Shown here: positions 29,901 through 53,900 of the stretch, in pieces
Numbering within the stretch: position 1 is the stretch's first letter
Layout: every line of letters begins with the position of its first letter
Assembly: GCF_032854445.1 (NCBI RefSeq)
Contig: NC_088301.1
Location: 14,258,281-14,322,280 of the forward strand
DNA from: Liolophura sinensis
Lineage: Eukaryota; Mollusca; Polyplacophora; Chitonida; Chitonidae
Direction of reading: 5' to 3'
DNA length: 64,000 nt
The notes under the pieces: model-generated
What the model saw: the letters and a program-made list of their open reading frames with translations, nothing else
What the model was told of the DNA's origin: nothing
The model's database searches: none
Translations under genes and position numbers: made by a program

Positions 29901-32900
29901 TATGTACATAAACACTCACAGGTACTGATGCAATAGGAAGCTAAATCAATACCTGAATCCTACATGTAGTATTGCATCCAAAGAAATCTCTATATTTATT
30001 TACTGATTTATTTGATTGGTGTTTTACGCCATACTCAAGAATATTTCACTTATACGACGGTGGCCAGCATTATGGTGGGAGGAAACCAGGCAGAGCCCAG
30101 TGGAAACCCACAACCATCCGCAGGTTGCTGACAGACCTTCCCGCTTACGGCCCGAGAGGAAGCCAGCAAGAGCTGGACTTGAACTCACAGCGACCACATT
30201 GGTGAGAGGCTTCTGGGTCATTACGCTGTGCTAGCGCACTAACCAACTGAGCCACGGAGGCCCCAAGATCTCTCTATAGCCTATGATGTATAAATTATTC
30301 ATTTGATTGTTGTTAGATGTCTTACTCAGAAAGTTTTCCCAACACGACTACAGTCAGGTGGAACGTTCTTTGTTTAAGCAGGGACTATGCTTCATAGAGT
30401 TACCCAATCCTCTGACCCCCTGAACAGCTAACACACACTGCTTACCCGACTCCTCTCCTCTAACTTGGTCATCATCACTACAGTGGCTGATCTCTGCTCC
30501 CACACCATCCTCCAGAAGTCACCAAACGTCTCAGGCAGAGGGCCCTACAAGTACATACACACGCTTTCAACTATTAACTCAGCTAAACTTCAGTGCACTT
30601 CACACAGGTCAAGTATGGAATCTACCATCAAACAGTTTACAAATGCAATGTAAGTTTTAGTTTTTCTTTCTGGACAAAAAACAGATAATCAGACATTTTT
30701 TCTGGACGCTTTAAATTTTTTTTAACAGTCTAGTGAATCAAATTATCAAATCAGGCCCAAACTCCGATAAACAAATCATAAAGATTATTCAACTGCTTTC
30801 AGTGTTGCAAAAAAAATGTTCACAAATTCTGCAAAGACTGAGGAAATTTGCATTACCAAAGGAGAACATGGTGAAAAGATGTTACACTGGTTCAGGTGAG
30901 AGAACAAAAACAATAGATGGTTGTCTGCAGCACATAGATTGTAGTTCTGTCTCCTGGCTTAAACACGCTGTCCTCACAGTGTGGCTGCAATACTGCCCAA
31001 GTGGCAGTATTAAGCAATAACCATTCACTCATTCATTCATTCAAATCGCCTACCAAGCACTATTCAGTCATGTGTGTGTCACTACACAATAGCTGAGTGG
31101 ATGTTGACATACCTGTGTAGCTATGTAAGCGTTCTGCTTCCTGTAGCCATCCATGTAGTTAGCGTTGATGTAGTCCCCGCCCGCCAGGCTCTCGATGGGC
31201 AGGAGAATAACCCGCGAGTGGTCGTAGGCGATCACGTTGGCGTACCTGTTCTTGGGTTTATTCACCTCCAGGCTGGAGTTGTCCCAGGTAAACTGCTGAC
31301 CGGGTTCTATGGACTCGTACTCTTGGGAAAACTTGTAGTTGTCGTTAGCCTTGAGAGCGTCGATGTGGTCGTTTAGCTGAGCTATGGGGATGGGTGGGTG
31401 ATTCATCATGGCTGAAAATATGCAATGGGCATGACAATGTACATGTAGGTGTACAGGATTGGCATGAAAAGTCAGGTGTACAGAACCGGCATGAAAAGTC
31501 AGGTGTACAGGATTAGCATGAATAGTCAGGTATACAGGGTTGGCATGGAAAGCCAGGTGTGTAGGATTGGCATGAAAGATTAGGTGTACAGAACTGGCAT
31601 GAAAAGTCAGGTGTACAGGATTAGCATGAATAGTCAGGTGTACAGGGTTGGCATGGAAAGCCAGGTGTATAGGATTGGCATGAAAGGTTAGGTGTACAGA
31701 ACTGGCAAGGAAAATAAAGTGTACAGGACTGGCATGGAAAGTCAGGTGTATAGGATTGGCATGAAAAGTCAGGTGTATAGCATAGTCAGGTGCACAGAAC
31801 TGGCATGGAAAGTCAGGTGTATAGGATTGGCACGAAAAGTCAGATGTACAGAACTGGCATGGAAAGTCAGATGTACAGGACTGGCATGGAATGTCAGTGT
31901 TTAGGATTGGTATGCAAAATCAGACGTACAGGGTTGGCATGGAATGCCAGGTGTACAGGACTGGCATGATAATACAGGTATAATGGGTTGGCATGAAGAT
32001 ATTTGTTATCTTGATTAGGGCGAACATTAAAAACACAGTTAATCTCATCATGAAACTGAGGTAAAAATTCTAGCCCAGATGATGCAGGTGAGAGGTTTGA
32101 GTCGCATAATGCTAAGCATATAACTGTCTACAGCAGTCTTGATTTCCATGTTCTAAACAAGTGTCCTGTTGTATTTATCTTTCTTCTTTTATTTATTTTT
32201 CTATTTATTCTTGGTCACCACACACATGCAAAACGAACTCTCAGATTAGACTGGTATCTAGCCTGCTAGTATTTGCAGTGTCTGTCCTCAACCTTTCGCA
32301 TATGAAAGGGAAACTTTGTGCACATTTTTAGTTTGATTATGGGGACAAAACTACATTGGTTGGATTGACCAATTTCAGGACTTCACAAAAAGTATAATTT
32401 TATCAGTCAACAAAGAATATTGCCTTCAGAATATGCTTTAATAAACACTTTGCAAACATCCGGGAAAGGTTGAAGAAATACACTACACCTGTACGTGGCT
32501 TACCTGGAGTCTGATAATTCTGCCTCCTCATCTCTACTGGATCGCAAGGATGAGCTGGAACCTCCACACGTATCTGAGTGGGTTCTGGACTCTTCTCTTT
32601 TCTGTTGGACTTTTTCCTGTAACATTCCAACGTGATGAAAATGATGCCCTATTGTGGCTCAACACAATTCTAAGATATAAACACTGATGCAAGTTCATGG
32701 GCTTATGCTGGCTTCCTCTCTGGCTGCATGTGGGAAGGTTTGTCAACAACTTGCCGATCATCGTGGGTTTTCTTCAACCATAATGTGGCCACCATCGTAC
32801 AAGTGCAATGCCTTTGAGTATGGTGTGAAACACCAATCAAGTAAATAAATAAGATATAAACAACTACATATAGTTAAAATACTAGTATTTTACTTTAAAT

Positions 32901-44900: not shown

Positions 44901-47900
44901 ATGCAGTTTACCAACACAAGTCCACAAACAATGAGACTTCAAATGCCAAAAGAAGTACCCTGTAGTCATCACTGACACGCCACATCTACTGAACCTTGGG
45001 TTATTTTCTCAGAGGACAAATAGGATTTAACGCCTGGATTTTACCTATTGTTTTTCACCGTCTCATGTCCAATAAACCATCTGAAAGAGACCAAGTGCTG
45101 GAAACATTAAATTCTGGGAACAAGAAATATATATAACGCACAAGAAAATATCTCAGACAGTTGACTTGCACAACCTCAACCCTATATATAGATTTGTCTG
45201 AAAACACTATCCTTGTACATTGGCTTAGAATCTGTGGGCTATGCTCAAAAAGCTCAAATTAAAGCCATCTCATTTCATCTTCAATAGCGTACATAACAGT
45301 TGATTCTATACTGGAAATTATTAAAGCTGATGAATGTAATCACTACGAAAGCAGAAAATTTATGGATAAAGAAGTAAATGCCTAGATCATAGGCCACCCT
45401 TTTCACAGAGCCACTTCAATGGCATCAAAAGAGAACAATAAAAAGTGACCGCTGGCTCAAACAATCAACCTAATTAGAGATAACATAAAATGTGGCTGAT
45501 TGGCATGTGATATTGATGTTTTCCCTGTATCAATTCGGATACAAATGTGTTCCATGCATCTCACACCAGTGTCCATCCTTGTGGTTTCTCTCTGTGTGAG
45601 TGTGTAGGCGTGCGTAAGCTTTGATGTGGCTCACTGGTGAGGTAATGATGCGTGATCACAGATCACTCTTACTGTGCAGGATGACAATTGTGTTGGTCAG
45701 CTCTAAAAGAGGCACGCAGACTGATAAAGAGCACTTCTATGAACTGGGTCATGACACAAAAACATGGTTAATTTTACGCCCACTTTCACTGAAATCATTC
45801 TATAGGTAGGCCTATGAAACTAAGAGCTCAGTGTCTTCTGAGGCGAGGTGAAAAATGCCCTCCAAGCTGTTGATGATAATTTTACCTGAGCTTGTTTACG
45901 AAGAAATATTTGTTTAAGGTTTCCATGCAAACGAGATGCGATGGTAGAGTCTCCAAACAGAACATTAGCATGTCTGTTTTGGTCCAGTTAAGAGTTCTTT
46001 AGAGGCAGTTATTTCTTGGTGTTCTCCCTCGCACCAGAGAACAGAGTATGTCTCTGTCGTGGCAGAAGGATAGATGGTTTGGAGTAGTCCAACTCTGTGA
46101 AGTCTGGTGCTTTAAGGCACAGCAGTTCCCTGCTGGTACTGCTGATGTACTGGTATTTACATACAACAGCCAGCCTGGGTCAGGAAGTCATATTTATCCC
46201 ACGACGCTTCTTGTTAAGGCTGGGGATGTGGAGAGTATGCCGAAACATCTGCCGCCTTTCCTGGCAAGGATGCGTTACATGTGTAGCCGAGAGGGAAAGT
46301 TCTTTGTGGCGGAGCATCACGCAAGCTTGATCTGTCTACAGGACTACTACATACACTATTTGCTCAGCAGAAAAACTCAGTGAAACACACGACCACAACA
46401 CAAGGGAAAGATAACACAACAAACTTTGCAGGCTATAAGGCCTCCATACTCATCTGCCTCATCTCAGTGAATAGAAACACATTCAAAGTAGTGTAACTGA
46501 CAAACACATCTTACACAGTGGACAGAGACAAAGAAATCAGTGATCAGAAACAAAGCCTGGACTGAAAAGCTACTGGAACACTATAAAGATAAATCACTTT
46601 GAAGAAAAGCACTATGAAGATAAACACTATGAAGACAAATACTAGAATGATAAACCATATCTGACCACAAGGAATCACTAGACAGCGTGGACAAAACACT
46701 TGGAATCACTTTGGGAAATAAATAACATAGTCTGGGAGCAAGAAAAAACAAAAGAGAAAGTGGACTTACCAAACGGCAAAGTTCGGACTTGGATGGTAGG
46801 GGTTTTCGCCCCCTCCCCGCGCTTTGATTTGGCAGACACCTGGATATGGTAGACAGTGTCAGGGGTGAGGTCGTTAAGAGTGAATCCTGCCACTGATGGA
46901 TCGATACTTATTCGGACATTTTGACGGAAATAGGAATCGTTGTAGTAGAGTTGGTAGCTCTCGATGGTGTCACTTTCATCGGGTGGTGTCCATGTTAGGC
47001 TGATAGAGTTGGGCGTTATTGCTTCTCCGTGGAGGTTACGCGGCTGAAGAGGAACTGAAAATAAAGTCGAACTTTGTCTAAAAAGTTTGTCTAAATCTAT
47101 GCCTCATTCCAGATTTATTTAAAATGAAAGGGTGAAGTGAATTTTGATAAATTATTAATCAAAAAGGGGTTTTAAGACTTTTTGCTTCATTAAATAAGAA
47201 TGCAATATTTAATCATGTACAATTTAGACAAGTCTATAAAAAATATGACACAATGATTCCAAAAAAAAAAAAGAAGATGGAATGAGTATTCAAGAAGACA
47301 GAAAATCTTATTGATTGAATGTAGATGCTGCTGTGTCTGTACAGCAGCTTTATCGCCGATGGATCTTTGCATTGCCAAATGTCAGCCACCATAACAGCTG
47401 ATGATAGGCAGAGCATTTCAGTCCTATGCTTCCCGCACAAGAAGCTTGCAGTCGCTTTGACTGAATGAGCCAGAGGGGCCAAATCAGGCACGAAACAGCA
47501 GCAAAGGAACTTTTCGCTTGGTTCTGAATCATAGTTCCTTGCGCACGCCAAGAGATCAATTTCCAAATGCATTTGGAGAACTGCTCGATGTCCGCTTTTT
47601 TAAGTTTTAGCGCTAGCTGCTGGACAAACATAATAGGTAACACACAATAAACACTCCTCAATCCTCATGACATTTTGCTTTTTATAAAAGAATTTCTTTG
47701 AAATATTACTTCTGATTGGTCTTTCATTGCTTCCTACAGGTGACAGGACAATGAAGTATTAAAGGCGTTTACGCAAACTGTCATTTCACTCCGTTTAAGG
47801 AGATGCATCAGGATTGAGAAATATTTCACACAGAAATCATATTTAAACATGCTGTAAAAAAACACGAGGCGTAAATAAGGGGCTGAGGAGTAAAAATGAT

Positions 47901-50900
47901 TTAAAGTTTTTTTTGCTGCTTTGCATACATGTACATGCAGTCTCATTTCTATGATACTACTCACTCAATAAATTTATTTATCTATATATTAAAGTTAAGA
48001 CACTATTAAACTCAAGAAATTAAAATCTTGGCAACTTGAATGAATGGCAACTTATTGTAACAGGACTTGTATGGTAAGGTGGGTGTGTGATCGCAATAAT
48101 TCACATGACAGTTAACTGTATCCTTATCATTCACTGGTGTCAGGTTGAAATCTTACATGGGCATGCAAAAGGACTTCTGGTTAATTGAACCACACAAATT
48201 GTACTTAAATGTTGTTAGTCAGACTTTCAGATTATAATATAATAGGGCATGCCGTGTAATAGACTGGTTACCTGGATAGAGTCTTGACATACCTACAGCA
48301 TAGGAGATATAGTTCGGTAAGTCAATCATAGAAGGAGCAGAATTACTGTATAATACAGGTATACTAAATTGTCATTTTATAACACAGGACATGCTGTGCA
48401 ACACATTAATTACCTTCTGGGTAGCCTCCAAATGGATAGCTATAACCAGGTCTCCAAATACCTACAGCATATGAGATGTAGTCTCATCATCTTCGTACAC
48501 TTTCCCTATCTGGAATTCAAGGACTGTTTTTTTGGCTAATTAAGTGAGTATTGAAGGACAGTTCAAGGCCTTCAAAGATCTTACTCTCTGAAAATACAAC
48601 CAGCTAAAACCTCAGTCATACATATCGGCCAGTGTAAAAATTTGACAACACCTTAATCGTCCATCAGTTACCAAACAAGTCTGGTATTACTTGCACAACT
48701 CCAGTTGAAGTGTAAATGCAATATCGGAATTCTTCATTTTTCAAGGACCTGTTTAATTTTTCTAGGTTTCCAGGGCCCGGAATTTTGTACTTTCATTTTC
48801 AATGACATTCAAAGCTTTTGAGGCTCCATGAAGTACAAACCCTAAGAAGGATTTTCAGTTCAAACATGTGAACCAAAATTACCCTAGTGTAGGCTCAATC
48901 AGTAACAGGGCATTTAACTGGTGTGGTCACGTTGAATTCCTGGCAGCAAATCAAGAGACAGGACAAGTAACATATTGTGTGAGCTGTGTTATTGTTGTTG
49001 TGATGGCATGTTGCACGTGTCTTCTTGATGACAACTGTTGACCTGGATGATTGCATTCAATTCTGTGTTCTCAAGGTAATGGAGATGTGCACATGTACTG
49101 TAATCCTTCTGATTTTGGGTAATATACATGTAATGTTAACAAGAACACAAAGTTTCTCTTTTCTCACATGGTTAGTACATCTAATGAACAATGGTGTTAA
49201 GCCATAATCATTCATTCTAATGAACAACACCTATCTTTACTTTTCTGAAAAACTAAGAGAATTGTAATTTTTCTTTTAAAGCACTGCTAATATCTGTCCC
49301 CATAATGTATTTATTCATTTATTTGTCTGATGTTTTTTACGTTGTACTCATGACTACTTCACTTATACAAGTGAGGCCAGCATTATGGTGTAAGGAAACC
49401 GGATAGAGACCGTGGGGAAACCCACGACCACACACAGGCTGCTCCTCACAACTAGAAGAACAATGAGCAGAAGAAGCACACTGGTTATAGGTACATGTAC
49501 ATACTAACTAACACAAAGCCTCAGATTTATTTAATGGATTGTTGCTCCACGCCATACTCAAGACCTGTTCACTTAACTGATGGGGGTCAGTTTTATGGGT
49601 GGAGGTACAAGGCGTTAAAGTTTGGTCTTTCAAAAACTTTCACCCAGATGAAGACTAAAAGTACACTGTATGCAGAGCAGCAAAGTTAACTTTGTAATTT
49701 GATCATTCAAAATACACATATACACACACACAAACATACAAACATGGAGAAAATAAATTATTCACAGCGCAAAAATAACGCTTTAGCAGAGTCCATACTT
49801 GTAGATGTCCACAAGATGGAGAAAAAAAAAAAAAGAAAAAAAAAAAATACTCAGGAGTTTGATGTGTTGTTAAAAGTACGGAGAAACAAAACTGAAAGAA
49901 AGATCACAAAATAAATTAATTCTGTTCATTCCGAAGACTGAACAATGAAGAAATCCACACAAATACGAAGAAAGATACATAAAATATAGATTACAGTTGA
50001 AACAGTGGCAGATCCTTATATAGATATATAAATAATACATGTATATACAGGTGCTGGAAGGCTTATAAATCTGCAAAAGAAAGATCGTTAGTGAAATTCT
50101 CACCTGCCTTAGCGGAGTCGTCTCCAAGGGGGGAAGAGAAAAACAGCCAGGTTAGTATGAAAGTGAGTGATATATACATAGGTATTGCAAGCTACCCATT
50201 CCAGTGTTCACAACAGTACAGCAGTGCCAGTAAGTTCTTGTGCCTTGCCGCTGCGCAAGCGCAACTTTCGCAGAAATTTGCTTGCCGACTGACTGTAGAG
50301 AATTTAGTCAAAGTAGCCTGTTATTGTTATTAGCTGGCTGTAAGAAACTTACATGAATCTTTGGTTAAAAACAGAAAGCGAAAAAGCAATACAAAACACA
50401 GGGACAATTTCACTGAAATGGCCGAAAAAAGCACAAGAAAATTTTTGATTACAGAAAAGAGAGTAATTATGTCAGAAAATTACATGGCACGCTTCAGAAA
50501 AATTTTCCGTAGGAATAAGAATTGTTATGAAAAAAACTTAAAAAACATTGGCATTGTTAATTTTTTGTCAAATAGAGAAGTAAAATGTTGATGGAAGTAA
50601 GCACACAGAGAGGTCCAGGTAAGAAAAAGTGAACAAGTAGACAAAATAGTTCAAAACTTGAGAAAGCTGTTCAAGCCAGGTTTAGAGGGTAAACAATATC
50701 AGGTCTAGTATGGGAAACAGTAGATCATGAGAAAAAACCGCGCAGCAAATACTTTAATCTAGTATCGACAGTCAGCGCCTTTATAATCATGCTGTGTGCT
50801 GCGGACCACATTATAGTTGTCATTTTCGTGACGTCTAACAGGACATAGGGGTAAAAAACATGACAATGGGACGAACAGTCAAATTCAAGTGGATTTTACA

Positions 50901-53900
50901 CCAATACAAGCGGAGTTGAACTAGTGACAATATAAGGCAGCTTGTACAAGACAGGCGAACAAGCAGGAAGATTGGCTGAATGCAAGACAACGGGCGAGAG
51001 ACCGTGTTAAGACAAGCACGATGCACACCGATGACCACGACACTCACATGAGCTTCAGAAGATCGGTCAAAAGGCATGCCCATACAAGTAGCTATAGCAT
51101 GTTGATATAAAGTACATTTAGATCGAGAAAAAACATTTAAGGTTTGAACCGGACGATCAAACTGGCCTGACCGATGATGACCTACTTACGCTCATAAACG
51201 GGGGCTCGACGAACTAGAAAACAAAATAGACTGTTCTTTTTTTTCTGCGATCAGACTATATTTAAAGTTAGCCCAAAGAGCTTGATAATGGTTCTGTCAA
51301 GAAGGCTGGCAGCCCCACTGGTGTAGGGCGATGTGTTGGGCACAACCTGGGCTCAGTCCTACACACATGACTTAAACCGTGCCATGGGTAGAATAGAGCT
51401 CAGCAGGTTTCTCCATGTTCTATGACTATGTGTTAACTACATGTACACTGCTTAGCTCATTCGGAACATTCCATATGATGTAACAGCTGAATAACACATG
51501 CCAACCTTCTTCAACAAAAAAAAAAAATATAAAAACCAAAAAAATGTCAAAAGTAAACCCTAACTTAGTCTTCCACATGGCTTGGTAAAAAGGTATAATC
51601 TTTGTCCCATGACAAACAATCTTTTTTCAAGAACTTTAACAAACAATCCCTAATGTTTTGTGTTTTCAAAATAGAACTTGTTTCTTTTTCCATTTCATAT
51701 TTACAAACTGACTAAAAAGGTGCCTACAGAATTGAGCACATGGATTAAGGGGACTGAATCAAGAATCCACGTACACCCTTGAAGCAATCACCATCAGTCA
51801 CTTGAAAATGTTAAATACTGATACTATATTTTTGTTTCCCCAAGAGATGTGGAAGATCTAATCTAACCTACAACACCAAAGCACGACACAACACAGACAA
51901 TATCAACAGTATTAAATATTCAAAATGTGTTAAATCTGGTAAATGATGGTGCTAATATAAGATGCAATTTACAGTATTTTTCATTCGGCATCTCAAATCA
52001 TGCTCAAGACCAACAGTAAATTGTGAATTCCTCCCCAAAATAGCCATATAAAAATGTGAAATCTTACTCCGTTACAATCAAGCCTGGCTTTGGAAAGACA
52101 TATTATTATTTCCAGTACAGCTTACTTTCATTACTTAATACCACGGAGAATTTAAAATTGTAAGCATCTTGATTTACAATAATTATTACAAAAAGGTTTG
52201 ACAGTTCTTTTTCCCCTTAAAGTCTGACAAGAACATCTGAACAGGACAAATAAAGACTGGTGACAGTACATTATCAACAGACACGATACTGACATGAACA
52301 TGTAAGGTTTTTTTTTGTACATGAAACCTATGGTGTTTTGTTGTGAATGTGTGTAACATGAAGAATGGCAGACCAGTATCACTTTTCACTATTAATATTA
52401 TCTTCAATGGATTTCTTTTCTATGGTTCTATGATCTAACCTCAGGCAGATGAGGCCTTTTCGAGTCAGTGTGTGTTCTAACACATGGTATATCTTCAAGT
52501 ATCACCGATCGTGGTAAAAATGATGGCCTGTAGCCTATATTTGTGTAGGAGAATAGTACAAATGGCCCCTCCATCTTTAATCTTTATAATTAGACCAACA
52601 ACAAAGCTGATTTCAGGGTACAGTCCAACAACTACGGAGCAATACAGCACTTTGAACGCACGTGTGATAATGGTCTGTGTTTCAAGTTCAAAGGCCTTGG
52701 GTGGTTCAGTGTTAGGGTAACAACATATCCTTATTTAACATTTCCCATCAGAATTTTTTGAAATCGGAGCCATAACTTCAAAGGTCTTGTGGCGTCAATG
52801 TGTTTGGCTACTACACATTTTGATGACACAGTAAAGACTTGTGAAGCAACTTACAAATTCTCCCATGATTTTTTCCTCAGTTCTTGAGTTTCAATGCGGG
52901 TGGAGACCACCAAAGAGGCCAGCTGTGTGTGCAGTTAAGCTGCTTGCACAACTCAAAATTAACTGTCACTCGTACTCCTAACAACAGCAGGTGCCAAGGT
53001 TAACTCTCAACAACCAAGCACTGAAGTTTATATGTTCTGAAAACTTCAAACTTTAAATTATGCCACTGAAGTGATCATCTATAGCATATCAAAGGTCAGA
53101 GAATTAATGATGTTGACAAACTGAGTGCATGCGTACCTGGATAAGGCATAATGAGGTCAGTATTAGTGCAAGCTTCTGAAGTAAGAGTAGCAGGGACACG
53201 GCTTTAAGGTGAAAACTACAAGTCTGTGGGTGTCCACTGGTTCTGCATTAGTGACAGAGGTTCTGTGTGATCTAGGACAACTGTGGGGGGGTAGGGGTGG
53301 TGCCCATGCTGCAAACAGGACATGCTGGGGACAGTTAATAACATAGGTAGTGGCATAACAAATATACATGGTCAATAGGGGTATATGCATATATATATAC
53401 ATATATACACATATATATATATATAGGCAAACATACAACTAAAATTGACAAGACGGTAACAAGTACGTACAGGGATGGTTGAAGAGGTCCAGGCAGTATC
53501 ACCATACCTGACACCCTGAAACAGAATCAGGCTACGCACGCACCGCACGCACATCCAATGGCTACAAGAACACTTGCTGTACTAAAACATTTCATATCTA
53601 AGATCTCCGCCAGTCGGCATGGTCAGCTTACCTCCTTGAGTGGTCATCACTTGAATGGGTTCGGACAACGGGCCCTGGCCGATGTTGGAGAAGGCTAGGA
53701 CGCTGATGGTGTAGGTATGGTTTGTCTTGAGGTTGCTGATTGATGTCAGTTTGTTGTTGGCAACCTCTCGGTGCTCCCAAAACACAATTGGAATGTCTGG
53801 ACTCAGTGTGTAAAACACCTTATAACCCTGTAATGTACACAAACATAAAACTTTGATTTCACCCCCATGTAATGAATACCTAAAACGTACAATGAATACA

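What the first reader, a model, noticed from the sequence alone, without database searches (positions are those of the whole stretch)
48272..53175. Cluster of five candidate cassette microexons in one ectodomain linker of a LAR receptor
The intron between FN3-2 and FN3-3 contains five AG...GT bounded segments of 39, 24, 18, 48 and 21 nt. Every one is a multiple of three, every one is open in phase 1, and the host intron is phase 1. Junction codons are also all sense, so all 32 inclusion combinations keep the frame and could add 0-50 residues. LAR-family receptors use microexons to tune ligand binding (established for Ig-region inserts), so a combinatorial set at an FN3 linker would be a new regulatory layer. 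I do not know of such a cluster at this position.
Basis: partly seen in the sequence, partly recalled or inferred. Interest (0 to 1): 0.78.

Follow-up and report, generated by a model that had tools for sequence, protein, structure and literature searches.

The report
Candidate microexon array in chiton LAR
In a chiton (a mollusc) gene for a nerve-cell adhesion receptor, one intron holds five tiny exon-like pieces that could each be added to the protein without breaking its reading frame; some look real, but no RNA or related genome was available to prove it.

Summary
The five segments exist exactly as described: 39, 24, 18, 48 and 21 nt, AG-...-GT bounded, minus strand of a LAR-type receptor phosphatase gene, in the phase-1 intron between FN3-2 and FN3-3. 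All 32 combinations stay open. The assembly is the chiton Liolophura sinensis (published as L. japonica). Statistical support is moderate: shuffled introns give so many strong in-frame pairs in 0 of 100 cases, but real chiton DNA has as many AG/GT pairs, and 8% of random windows hold five or more. The frame bias (6 of 6 multiples of three) gives p about 0.005 at 5 bits and fades at looser thresholds. Independent support differs by segment: m18 and m24 have exon-like codons; m18 is bracketed by ACTAAC; m48 and m21 are a tandem duplicate similar only around the splice sites; m39 scores best; three of five have GCATG just downstream. A candidate eMIC (microexon-enhancer) domain is encoded, weakly supported. 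Best reading: two or more are true cassette microexons lengthening this linker; five independent ones are not established, and m48/m21 may exclude each other. Known LAR microexons lie elsewhere. New variant of a known kind, if real.

The parts
53632..53827 (-). Upstream host exon: second half of FN3-2, ends ...IQVMTTQ-G in phase 1
   Evidence: 5'ss score 6.8
53137..53175 (-). m39, candidate microexon, [13 protein letters not shown]
   Evidence: top-scoring of 234 candidates; GCATG at position 5 of the downstream intron; codons neutral
51190..51213 (-). m24, candidate microexon, VRRAPVYE
   Evidence: 3'ss 3.7, 5'ss 1.7; codon score in the top 1% of same-length intronic draws; GC 0.58 against 0.38 in flanks
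50104..50121 (-). m18, candidate microexon, DDSAKA
   Evidence: 5'ss 7.1, weak GAG acceptor 0.6; ACTAAC at -35 and +12, 0 of 280 decoys have ACTAAY on both sides; codon score in the top 2%
48414..48461 (-). m48, candidate microexon, [16 protein letters not shown]; larger copy of a tandem duplicate
   Evidence: GCATG at +20 and TGC at -8; codons neutral
48272..48292 (-). m21, candidate microexon, GMSRLYP; smaller copy of the duplicate
   Evidence: GCATG at +20 and TGC at -8; codons neutral
48293..48413 (-). 121-nt spacer between m48 and m21, shorter than any of the 22 LAR introns listed
   Evidence: coordinates; intron list
46770..47054 (-). Downstream host exon: FN3-3, begins (G)[11 protein letters not shown]
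   Evidence: aligns best to the third FN3 domain of 6tpw and 4yh7
50353..50412 (-). 60-nt mechanical candidate, in phase, judged not an exon ([20 protein letters not shown])
   Evidence: rank 2; codon score -16.5 bits over 20 codons

Best explanation
The intron carries a set of very short in-frame cassette exons at the FN3-2/FN3-3 linker of the chiton LAR receptor, of which at least two are real (m18, m24, the m48/m21 pair and m39 are the candidates, in no firm order). Default splicing joins the two FN3 exons directly (...TTQ-G-VPLQP...). In some cells, most likely neurons, microexon-promoting factors (an eMIC-type SRRM protein, helped by an RBFOX-like factor at the downstream GCATG sites) bring in one or more of them. 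Each adds 6 to 16 residues to a short linker and so changes spacing and bend between FN3-2 and FN3-3. m48 and m21 arose by tandem duplication and are probably used one at a time. Shown here: the sequence, the frame, the duplicate footprint, the motifs. Weakly shown: an eMIC domain in the genome. Inferred: that the segments are spliced in, where, by what, and the effect on the receptor.
For: All five in frame and open in the host phase, 32 of 32 combinations open. Five of the six best of 234 candidates. Splice scores lie in the range of the LAR sites I took as constitutive (3'ss 1.2-6.2; 5'ss 0.9-7.7) except the m18 acceptor (0.6). 6 of 6 pairs are multiples of three against 14 of 47 elsewhere in the gene. 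Summed codon score above 98.9% of same-length open draws from other LAR introns and 99.25% from the host intron, carried by m24 and m18, which beat all 153 in-frame decoys per codon. m48/m21: 18 of 20 identical at -20..-1, 9 of the first 12 exon bases, 25 of 37 after the donor (last two counted by me), chance level beyond -21. GCATG within 30 nt downstream in 3 of 5 against 20 of 280 decoys; ACTAAY on both sides of m18 against 0 of 280. The m18/m24 and m48/m21 stretches match only themselves in the assembly; other matches of the m39 stretch, in the rows listed, lie in a neighbouring TA-rich run, so repeat insertion is unlikely. Two SRRM_C pieces in order on one strand of C10.
Against: No transcript and no second species. 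Pair density is no higher than elsewhere, and 8.3% of 588 overlapping random windows hold five or more open pairs in a given phase. The 12-kb Ig2b-Ig3 intron also has in-phase candidates scoring as high as m39 (6, 45 and 9 nt at 10.6, 9.7 and 9.0 bits). m39, m48 and m21 have intron-like codons. The m18 acceptor is GAG, rare at real sites (general knowledge), and its own donor is strong, unlike fly eMIC exons. GCATG also follows 3 of 24 constitutive LAR donors, motifs were chosen after looking, and m48/m21 are one event, not two. TGC within 10 nt of the acceptor is not clearly enriched (2 of 5 against 53 of 280). SRRM_C was not found at E 0.001; at E 10 the pieces have E 0.6 and 1.8, and two bacterial control genomes also ring below the cut-off.
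Confidence: 0.58

Rival explanations
1. Chance: ordinary intron sequence in which AG..GT pairs of the right length and frame happen to lie; none, or at most one, is spliced.
Against: Frame bias at 5-6 bits, codon content of m24 and m18, the duplicated splice-region footprint, ACTAAC on both sides of m18.
Confidence: 0.29
2. Mutually exclusive choice rather than free combination (a variant of the best explanation, so the two overlap): at least m48 and m21 are alternatives, so one short insert of variable sequence is chosen.
For: m48 and m21 are tandem duplicates separated by only 121 nt, against a shortest listed LAR intron of 426 nt. Mutually exclusive use of tandem duplicated exons is a known pattern (start of the abstract of PMC9741552 seen in a listing).
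Against: m39, m24 and m18 lie 1.1 to 1.9 kb from their neighbours and no repeat family ties them to the pair (by eye m39 and m21 share the ending TATCCAG). All lengths are multiples of three, so exclusion is not forced by frame. Introns near 120 nt may exist in other genes; I did not look.
Confidence: 0.3
3. Recursive splicing sites: the AG|GT at the start of m48 and m21 serve to remove the intron in steps, the short exon being a by-product.
For: Both begin with GT right after the acceptor AG; joining FN3-2 to m21 would rebuild a good donor (AAGGAG|gtatgt, 5.0 bits).
Against: The rebuilt donor at m48 is weak (0.9 bits); 6 of 36 acceptors of 2 bits or more in this intron are followed by GT; the intron is only 6.6 kb; does not explain m39, m24, m18.
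Confidence: 0.06

Closest known systems
LAR-RPTP meA (meA3/meA6; PTPRD)
   Same: Two neighbouring in-frame microexons used singly or together at one ectodomain site
   Different: Lies inside Ig2, 3 and 6 residues; experimentally shown. The chiton intron that I take as equivalent (Ig2a-Ig2b, 537 nt) gave no candidate
LAR-RPTP meB
   Same: Short insert in a linker between two ectodomain modules, described as a flexible linker that alters ligand choice
   Different: Between Ig2 and Ig3, four residues, one exon
LAR-RPTP meC
   Same: Microexon in the FN3 part of the ectodomain
   Different: Sits inside FN5, not in the FN3-2/FN3-3 linker
Ptprd/Ptprf microexon between FN8 and the membrane
   Same: 4-5 residue insert outside a folded FN3 domain
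   Different: Different linker, single exon
eMIC-dependent neuronal microexons of flies
   Same: Fly features in the passage read (PMC8797185): strong upstream donor (host donor 6.8 bits), UGC near the acceptor (m48, m21), long AG-free zone (m18 68 nt, m21 51 nt), CUAAY branch point (m18)
   Different: No splicing data here; fly eMIC exons have weak own donors, m18 has a strong one; m24 and m39 fit poorly; AG-free zones of 24 LAR acceptors span 10-180 nt, so the zone alone says little

Membership tests
LAR-type (type IIa) receptor protein tyrosine phosphatase gene | Three Ig, several FN3, TM, tandem PTP domains of LAR type | tested here: met
   First-PTP exon best matches 1lar (LAR) and 6kr4 (PTPRF), both 3.8e-62; FN3-3 exon best matches the third FN3 of 6tpw and 4yh7; Ig3 65%, FN1 55%, Ig1 41% and two Ig2 pieces 45% and 60% identical to a recalled vertebrate LAR-family query, same strand, upstream; further FN3 matches in the window. 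TM and D2 exons read from ORFs only
Cassette microexon | Length at most about 51 nt, usually a multiple of three, open in the host phase | tested here: met
Cassette microexon | Usable 3' and 5' splice sites | tested here: inconclusive
   Within the range of constitutive LAR sites except the m18 acceptor; equally scored pairs are common in other introns and random sequence
Cassette microexon | Spliced into some mRNAs and skipped in others | not testable with these tools
   No reads held; [quoted passage not shown]
Cassette microexon | Conserved exon and flanks in relatives | not testable with these tools
   No other mollusc genome is held; only the m48/m21 duplicate gives an internal comparison
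eMIC-regulated neuronal microexon | UGC close to the acceptor, strong branch point, long AG-free zone | tested here: inconclusive
   TGC at -8 in m48 and m21 (2 of 5; decoys 53 of 280 within 10 nt); CTAAC and 68-nt AG-free zone in m18; 51-nt zone in m21
eMIC-regulated neuronal microexon | eMIC domain protein in the genome | tested here: inconclusive
   No SRRM_C match at E 0.001. At E 10 two pieces in order on C10: model 3-55 (20 bits, E 0.6; 27.5 bits with its neighbours in the same frame, cut-off 27) and 56-67 (18.5 bits, E 1.8); the second reads ARKRPVPYYRPTPPSPSS
Known LAR-RPTP microexon sites meA-meD | Same position in the protein | tested here: not met
   FN3-2/FN3-3 linker; described sites are Ig2, Ig2-Ig3, FN5, before D1, and FN8-TM

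The most novel reading that the evidence does not exclude
A combinatorial length code in one FN3 linker of LAR: up to five microexons, regulated by RBFOX-like and eMIC-type factors, tune the reach and bend of the receptor ectodomain over 0 to 50 residues in chiton neurons, a form of isoform diversity not described for any LAR-type receptor in what I read.
Probability: 0.17. Interest if true: 0.72.

Novelty: new variant of a known kind. Interest (0 to 1): 0.46.

Why it matters
In mammals, microexons of LAR receptors choose synaptic partners. An array at a new site in a mollusc would suggest that lineages evolve this code separately and at other joints of the same receptor, and would make FN3-linker length a testable variable. 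If it fails, it is a useful warning: real introns are full of AG..GT pairs, and shuffled controls overstate the case.

Tried and rejected
Considered and set aside: (1) Repeat-derived exons: DNA searches of three stretches covering all five segments found m18, m24, m48 and m21 only at their own place; the m39 stretch had 173 matches, and in the rows listed those other than itself lie in its TA-rich part (that search skips simple repeats and very common words). (2) A sixth exon at 50412 (60 nt): in phase and well scored, but its codons are strongly non-coding. (3) meA and meB equivalents in the chiton gene: no candidate in the 537-nt Ig2a-Ig2b intron; nine in the 12-kb Ig2b-Ig3 intron, three of them at 9.0-10.6 bits, none of which I could tie to the known meB peptides. 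(4) A strong acceptor-like site just downstream of m18 (50070, 5.7 bits): read in phase 1 it meets a TAA at once, so not counted. (5) Papers: nine text searches, of which 9, 42, 44, 51 and 52 asked about LAR microexons or LAR isoforms, showed in the rows listed no report of a LAR microexon at the FN3-2/FN3-3 linker or in molluscs; the library is open-access only and the lists are capped. A paper on fly microexons has no 'Lar' in its main text. Read: section 6 and passages of PMC10883964; the whole of PMC12441733; passages of PMC11068029, PMC8797185, PMC12287369, PMC8711739, PMC12598525; of PMC9140312 only reference-list passages; a term search without hits in PMC8042270; all others as listings.

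Limits of the statistics: splice scores use a generic metazoan matrix written from memory, not one trained on this genome. The decoy set and the random set leave out the minus strand of L017 (98 pairs, far above the other strands; presumably a tandem repeat, not checked); one search keeps it. The LAR part of the decoys runs through exons as well as introns. Exon ends are partly approximate: one search treats FN1 to FN2b as one intron although it holds the FN2a exon found (split), and some listed PTP introns may hold exons that I did not place; hence 47 pairs and 46. Motifs were picked after seeing the sequence.
Full report
Where it is. The assembly has 609,464,459 bases in 632 contigs, with the window at C7:14258281-14322280. 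Its contigs C1 and C9 measure 96,433,062 and 37,343,639, equal to the longest scaffold and the N50 printed for the chiton genome published as Liolophura japonica, which has 632 scaffolds and 609,495,693 bases, 31 kb more than held here (passages of PMC11068029). The authors later corrected the species to L. sinensis (whole text of PMC12441733). The gene runs on the minus strand. Its first-PTP exon best matches LAR/PTPRF chains, its FN3-3 exon aligns best to the third FN3 domain of 6tpw and 4yh7, and Ig1, Ig2, Ig3 and FN1 exons lie upstream on the same strand.

The observation. All five segments are present exactly as reported. The joint without inserts reads TTQ-G-VPLQP. The inserts read [13 protein letters not shown] (m39), VRRAPVYE (m24), DDSAKA (m18), [16 protein letters not shown] (m48) and GMSRLYP (m21). 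All 32 combinations are open. The residue at a joint can change with the combination: m24 followed by FN3-3 gives L instead of V, and m24 followed by m18 gives H instead of D.

Is it more than chance? A scan for AG..GT segments of 9-60 nt, multiple of three, open in phase 1, gave 234; the five are ranks 1, 3, 4, 5 and 6 by summed splice score. Six reach 5 bits, against 1.01 +/- 1.03 in 100 dinucleotide shuffles, none reaching six. In 36 overlapping tiles of the window the largest count away from the host intron is 4. Shuffles are too kind a control. Real chiton DNA has as many AG..GT pairs of that strength: 6 in this intron, 47 in the other 21 listed LAR introns, which is 5.9 per 6577 nt (my sum), and a mean of 7.2 in 280 kb of random strands; 8.3% of 588 overlapping random windows, repeat-rich strands included, hold five or more that are open in a given phase. 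The 12-kb Ig2b-Ig3 intron too has three in-phase candidates at 9.0-10.6 bits, two of them only 6 and 9 nt long. The unusual thing here is the frame. Taking every length from 9 to 51 nt, 6 of 6 pairs are multiples of three and 5 are open in phase 1; in the other LAR introns 14 of 47 are multiples of three and 5 are open in phase 1. Against LAR introns and random sequence pooled (46 + 209 pairs) p is 0.0039 and 0.0055. At 6 bits it is 0.02 and 0.0027, at 4 bits 0.10 and 0.064, at 3 bits 0.18 and 0.19. I call it moderate.

Independent evidence, segment by segment. Codon content, scored with 1249 codons of LAR exons against introns, sums to +2.9 bits over 50 codons, where same-length open draws average -14.7 (sd 8.2) in other LAR introns, 1.1% as high, and -16.7 (sd 8.1) in the host intron, 0.75% as high. 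The signal lies in m24 and m18, which exceed all 153 in-frame decoys per codon; m39, m48 and m21 sit in the middle of those decoys. GC is 0.58 and 0.61 in m24 and m18, with 0.38 in their flanks. m18 has ACTAAC 35 nt before and 12 nt after it; none of 280 decoy pairs has ACTAAY on both sides. Its AG-free zone is 68 nt and its pyrimidine tract 91%, but its acceptor is GAG. m48 and m21 are copies: 18 of 20 bases before the acceptor agree, 9 of the first 12 exon bases, 25 of 37 after the donor (the last two counted by me), and nothing beyond chance further up. The net length difference is 27 nt, placed as one gap and as gaps of 9 and 18 nt; m48 contains ATTTGGAG twice, 26 nt apart, so an internal duplication may explain the extra length. 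I cannot tell a short duplication from a longer one worn down to its functional part. GCATG, the core of the RBFOX site (general knowledge), lies within 30 nt after the donor in m39 (+5), m48 (+20) and m21 (+20), against 20 of 280 decoys and 3 of 24 constitutive LAR donors. The copies count once, and the motif was chosen after looking.

Machinery. The SRRM_C profile finds nothing at E 0.001. At E 10 it matches two pieces on C10, model positions 3-55 and 56-67, in the right order on one strand, 4.5 kb apart; the first has 20 bits (27.5 with its neighbours in the same frame, cut-off 27), the second 18.5, and two bacterial controls ring below the cut-off. The first is Arg/Ser-rich; the second reads ARKRPVPYYRPTPPSPSS, which I recall as typical of the eMIC end of SRRM3/4. 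So an eMIC domain is likely but not proved. In non-vertebrates this programme is restricted to neurons by processing of the eMIC domain in Srrm234 (passages of PMC8797185). Fly eMIC exons have weak own donors, a strong upstream donor, UGC near the acceptor, long AG-free zones and strong CUAAY branch points; m18 and m21 fit in part, the others poorly.

Mechanism, most likely. Direct joining is the default; in neurons one or more microexons enter and lengthen the linker. FN3-1 and FN3-2 carry the NGL-3 site in vertebrate PTPRD (table passage of PMC12598525), so an insert just after FN3-2 could change how that face is presented. All of this is inference. Because m48 and m21 are 121 nt apart and the shortest LAR intron listed is 426 nt, I expect them to be alternatives rather than partners.

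Against what is known. LAR-RPTP microexons are described in Ig2 (meA, itself two neighbouring microexons), between Ig2 and Ig3 (meB), in FN5 (meC), before D1 (meD) and between FN8 and the membrane (section 6 of PMC10883964; passages of PMC8711739 and PMC12598525). None of these is at FN3-2/FN3-3. So position and number are new if the exons are real, and the kind is known.

Verdict. Observation confirmed; interpretation partly supported. I put 0.58 on two or more real microexons and 0.17 on the full combinatorial reading. No transcript and no second species were available, so this rests on sequence alone.

Noticed in passing
window 50070 (minus strand): A strong acceptor-like site (ACTAAC, pyrimidine tract, TGCAG; 5.7 bits) whose AG ends 33 nt after m18, with no open exon behind it in phase 1; possible decoy or competing acceptor.
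   Followed up: partly
L001 and L002 (G000 C10:18200556-18205208): Candidate eMIC domain of an SRRM2/3/4-type gene, split over two pieces 4.5 kb apart.
   Followed up: partly
L005 and L003-L004 region, window coordinates 80953 and 81942, 84110 (beyond the window's end): In the 12-kb Ig2b-Ig3 intron, where vertebrates have meB, three in-phase candidates of 45, 9 and 6 nt score 9.0-10.6 bits.
   Followed up: no
window about 31420-31919: Tandem-repeat-like stretch just in front of a PTP exon, open in one frame with repeats such as [10 protein letters not shown]; probably intronic.
   Followed up: no
window 49330-49620 and ORFs in many places: By eye, SINE-like pieces of a repeat seen often in molluscs (recalled, not searched), some in LAR introns.
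   Followed up: no
L017 minus strand (G000 C10:25000001-25010000): 98 AG..GT pairs of 5 bits or more in 10 kb, far above other control strands, presumably a tandem repeat.
   Followed up: no
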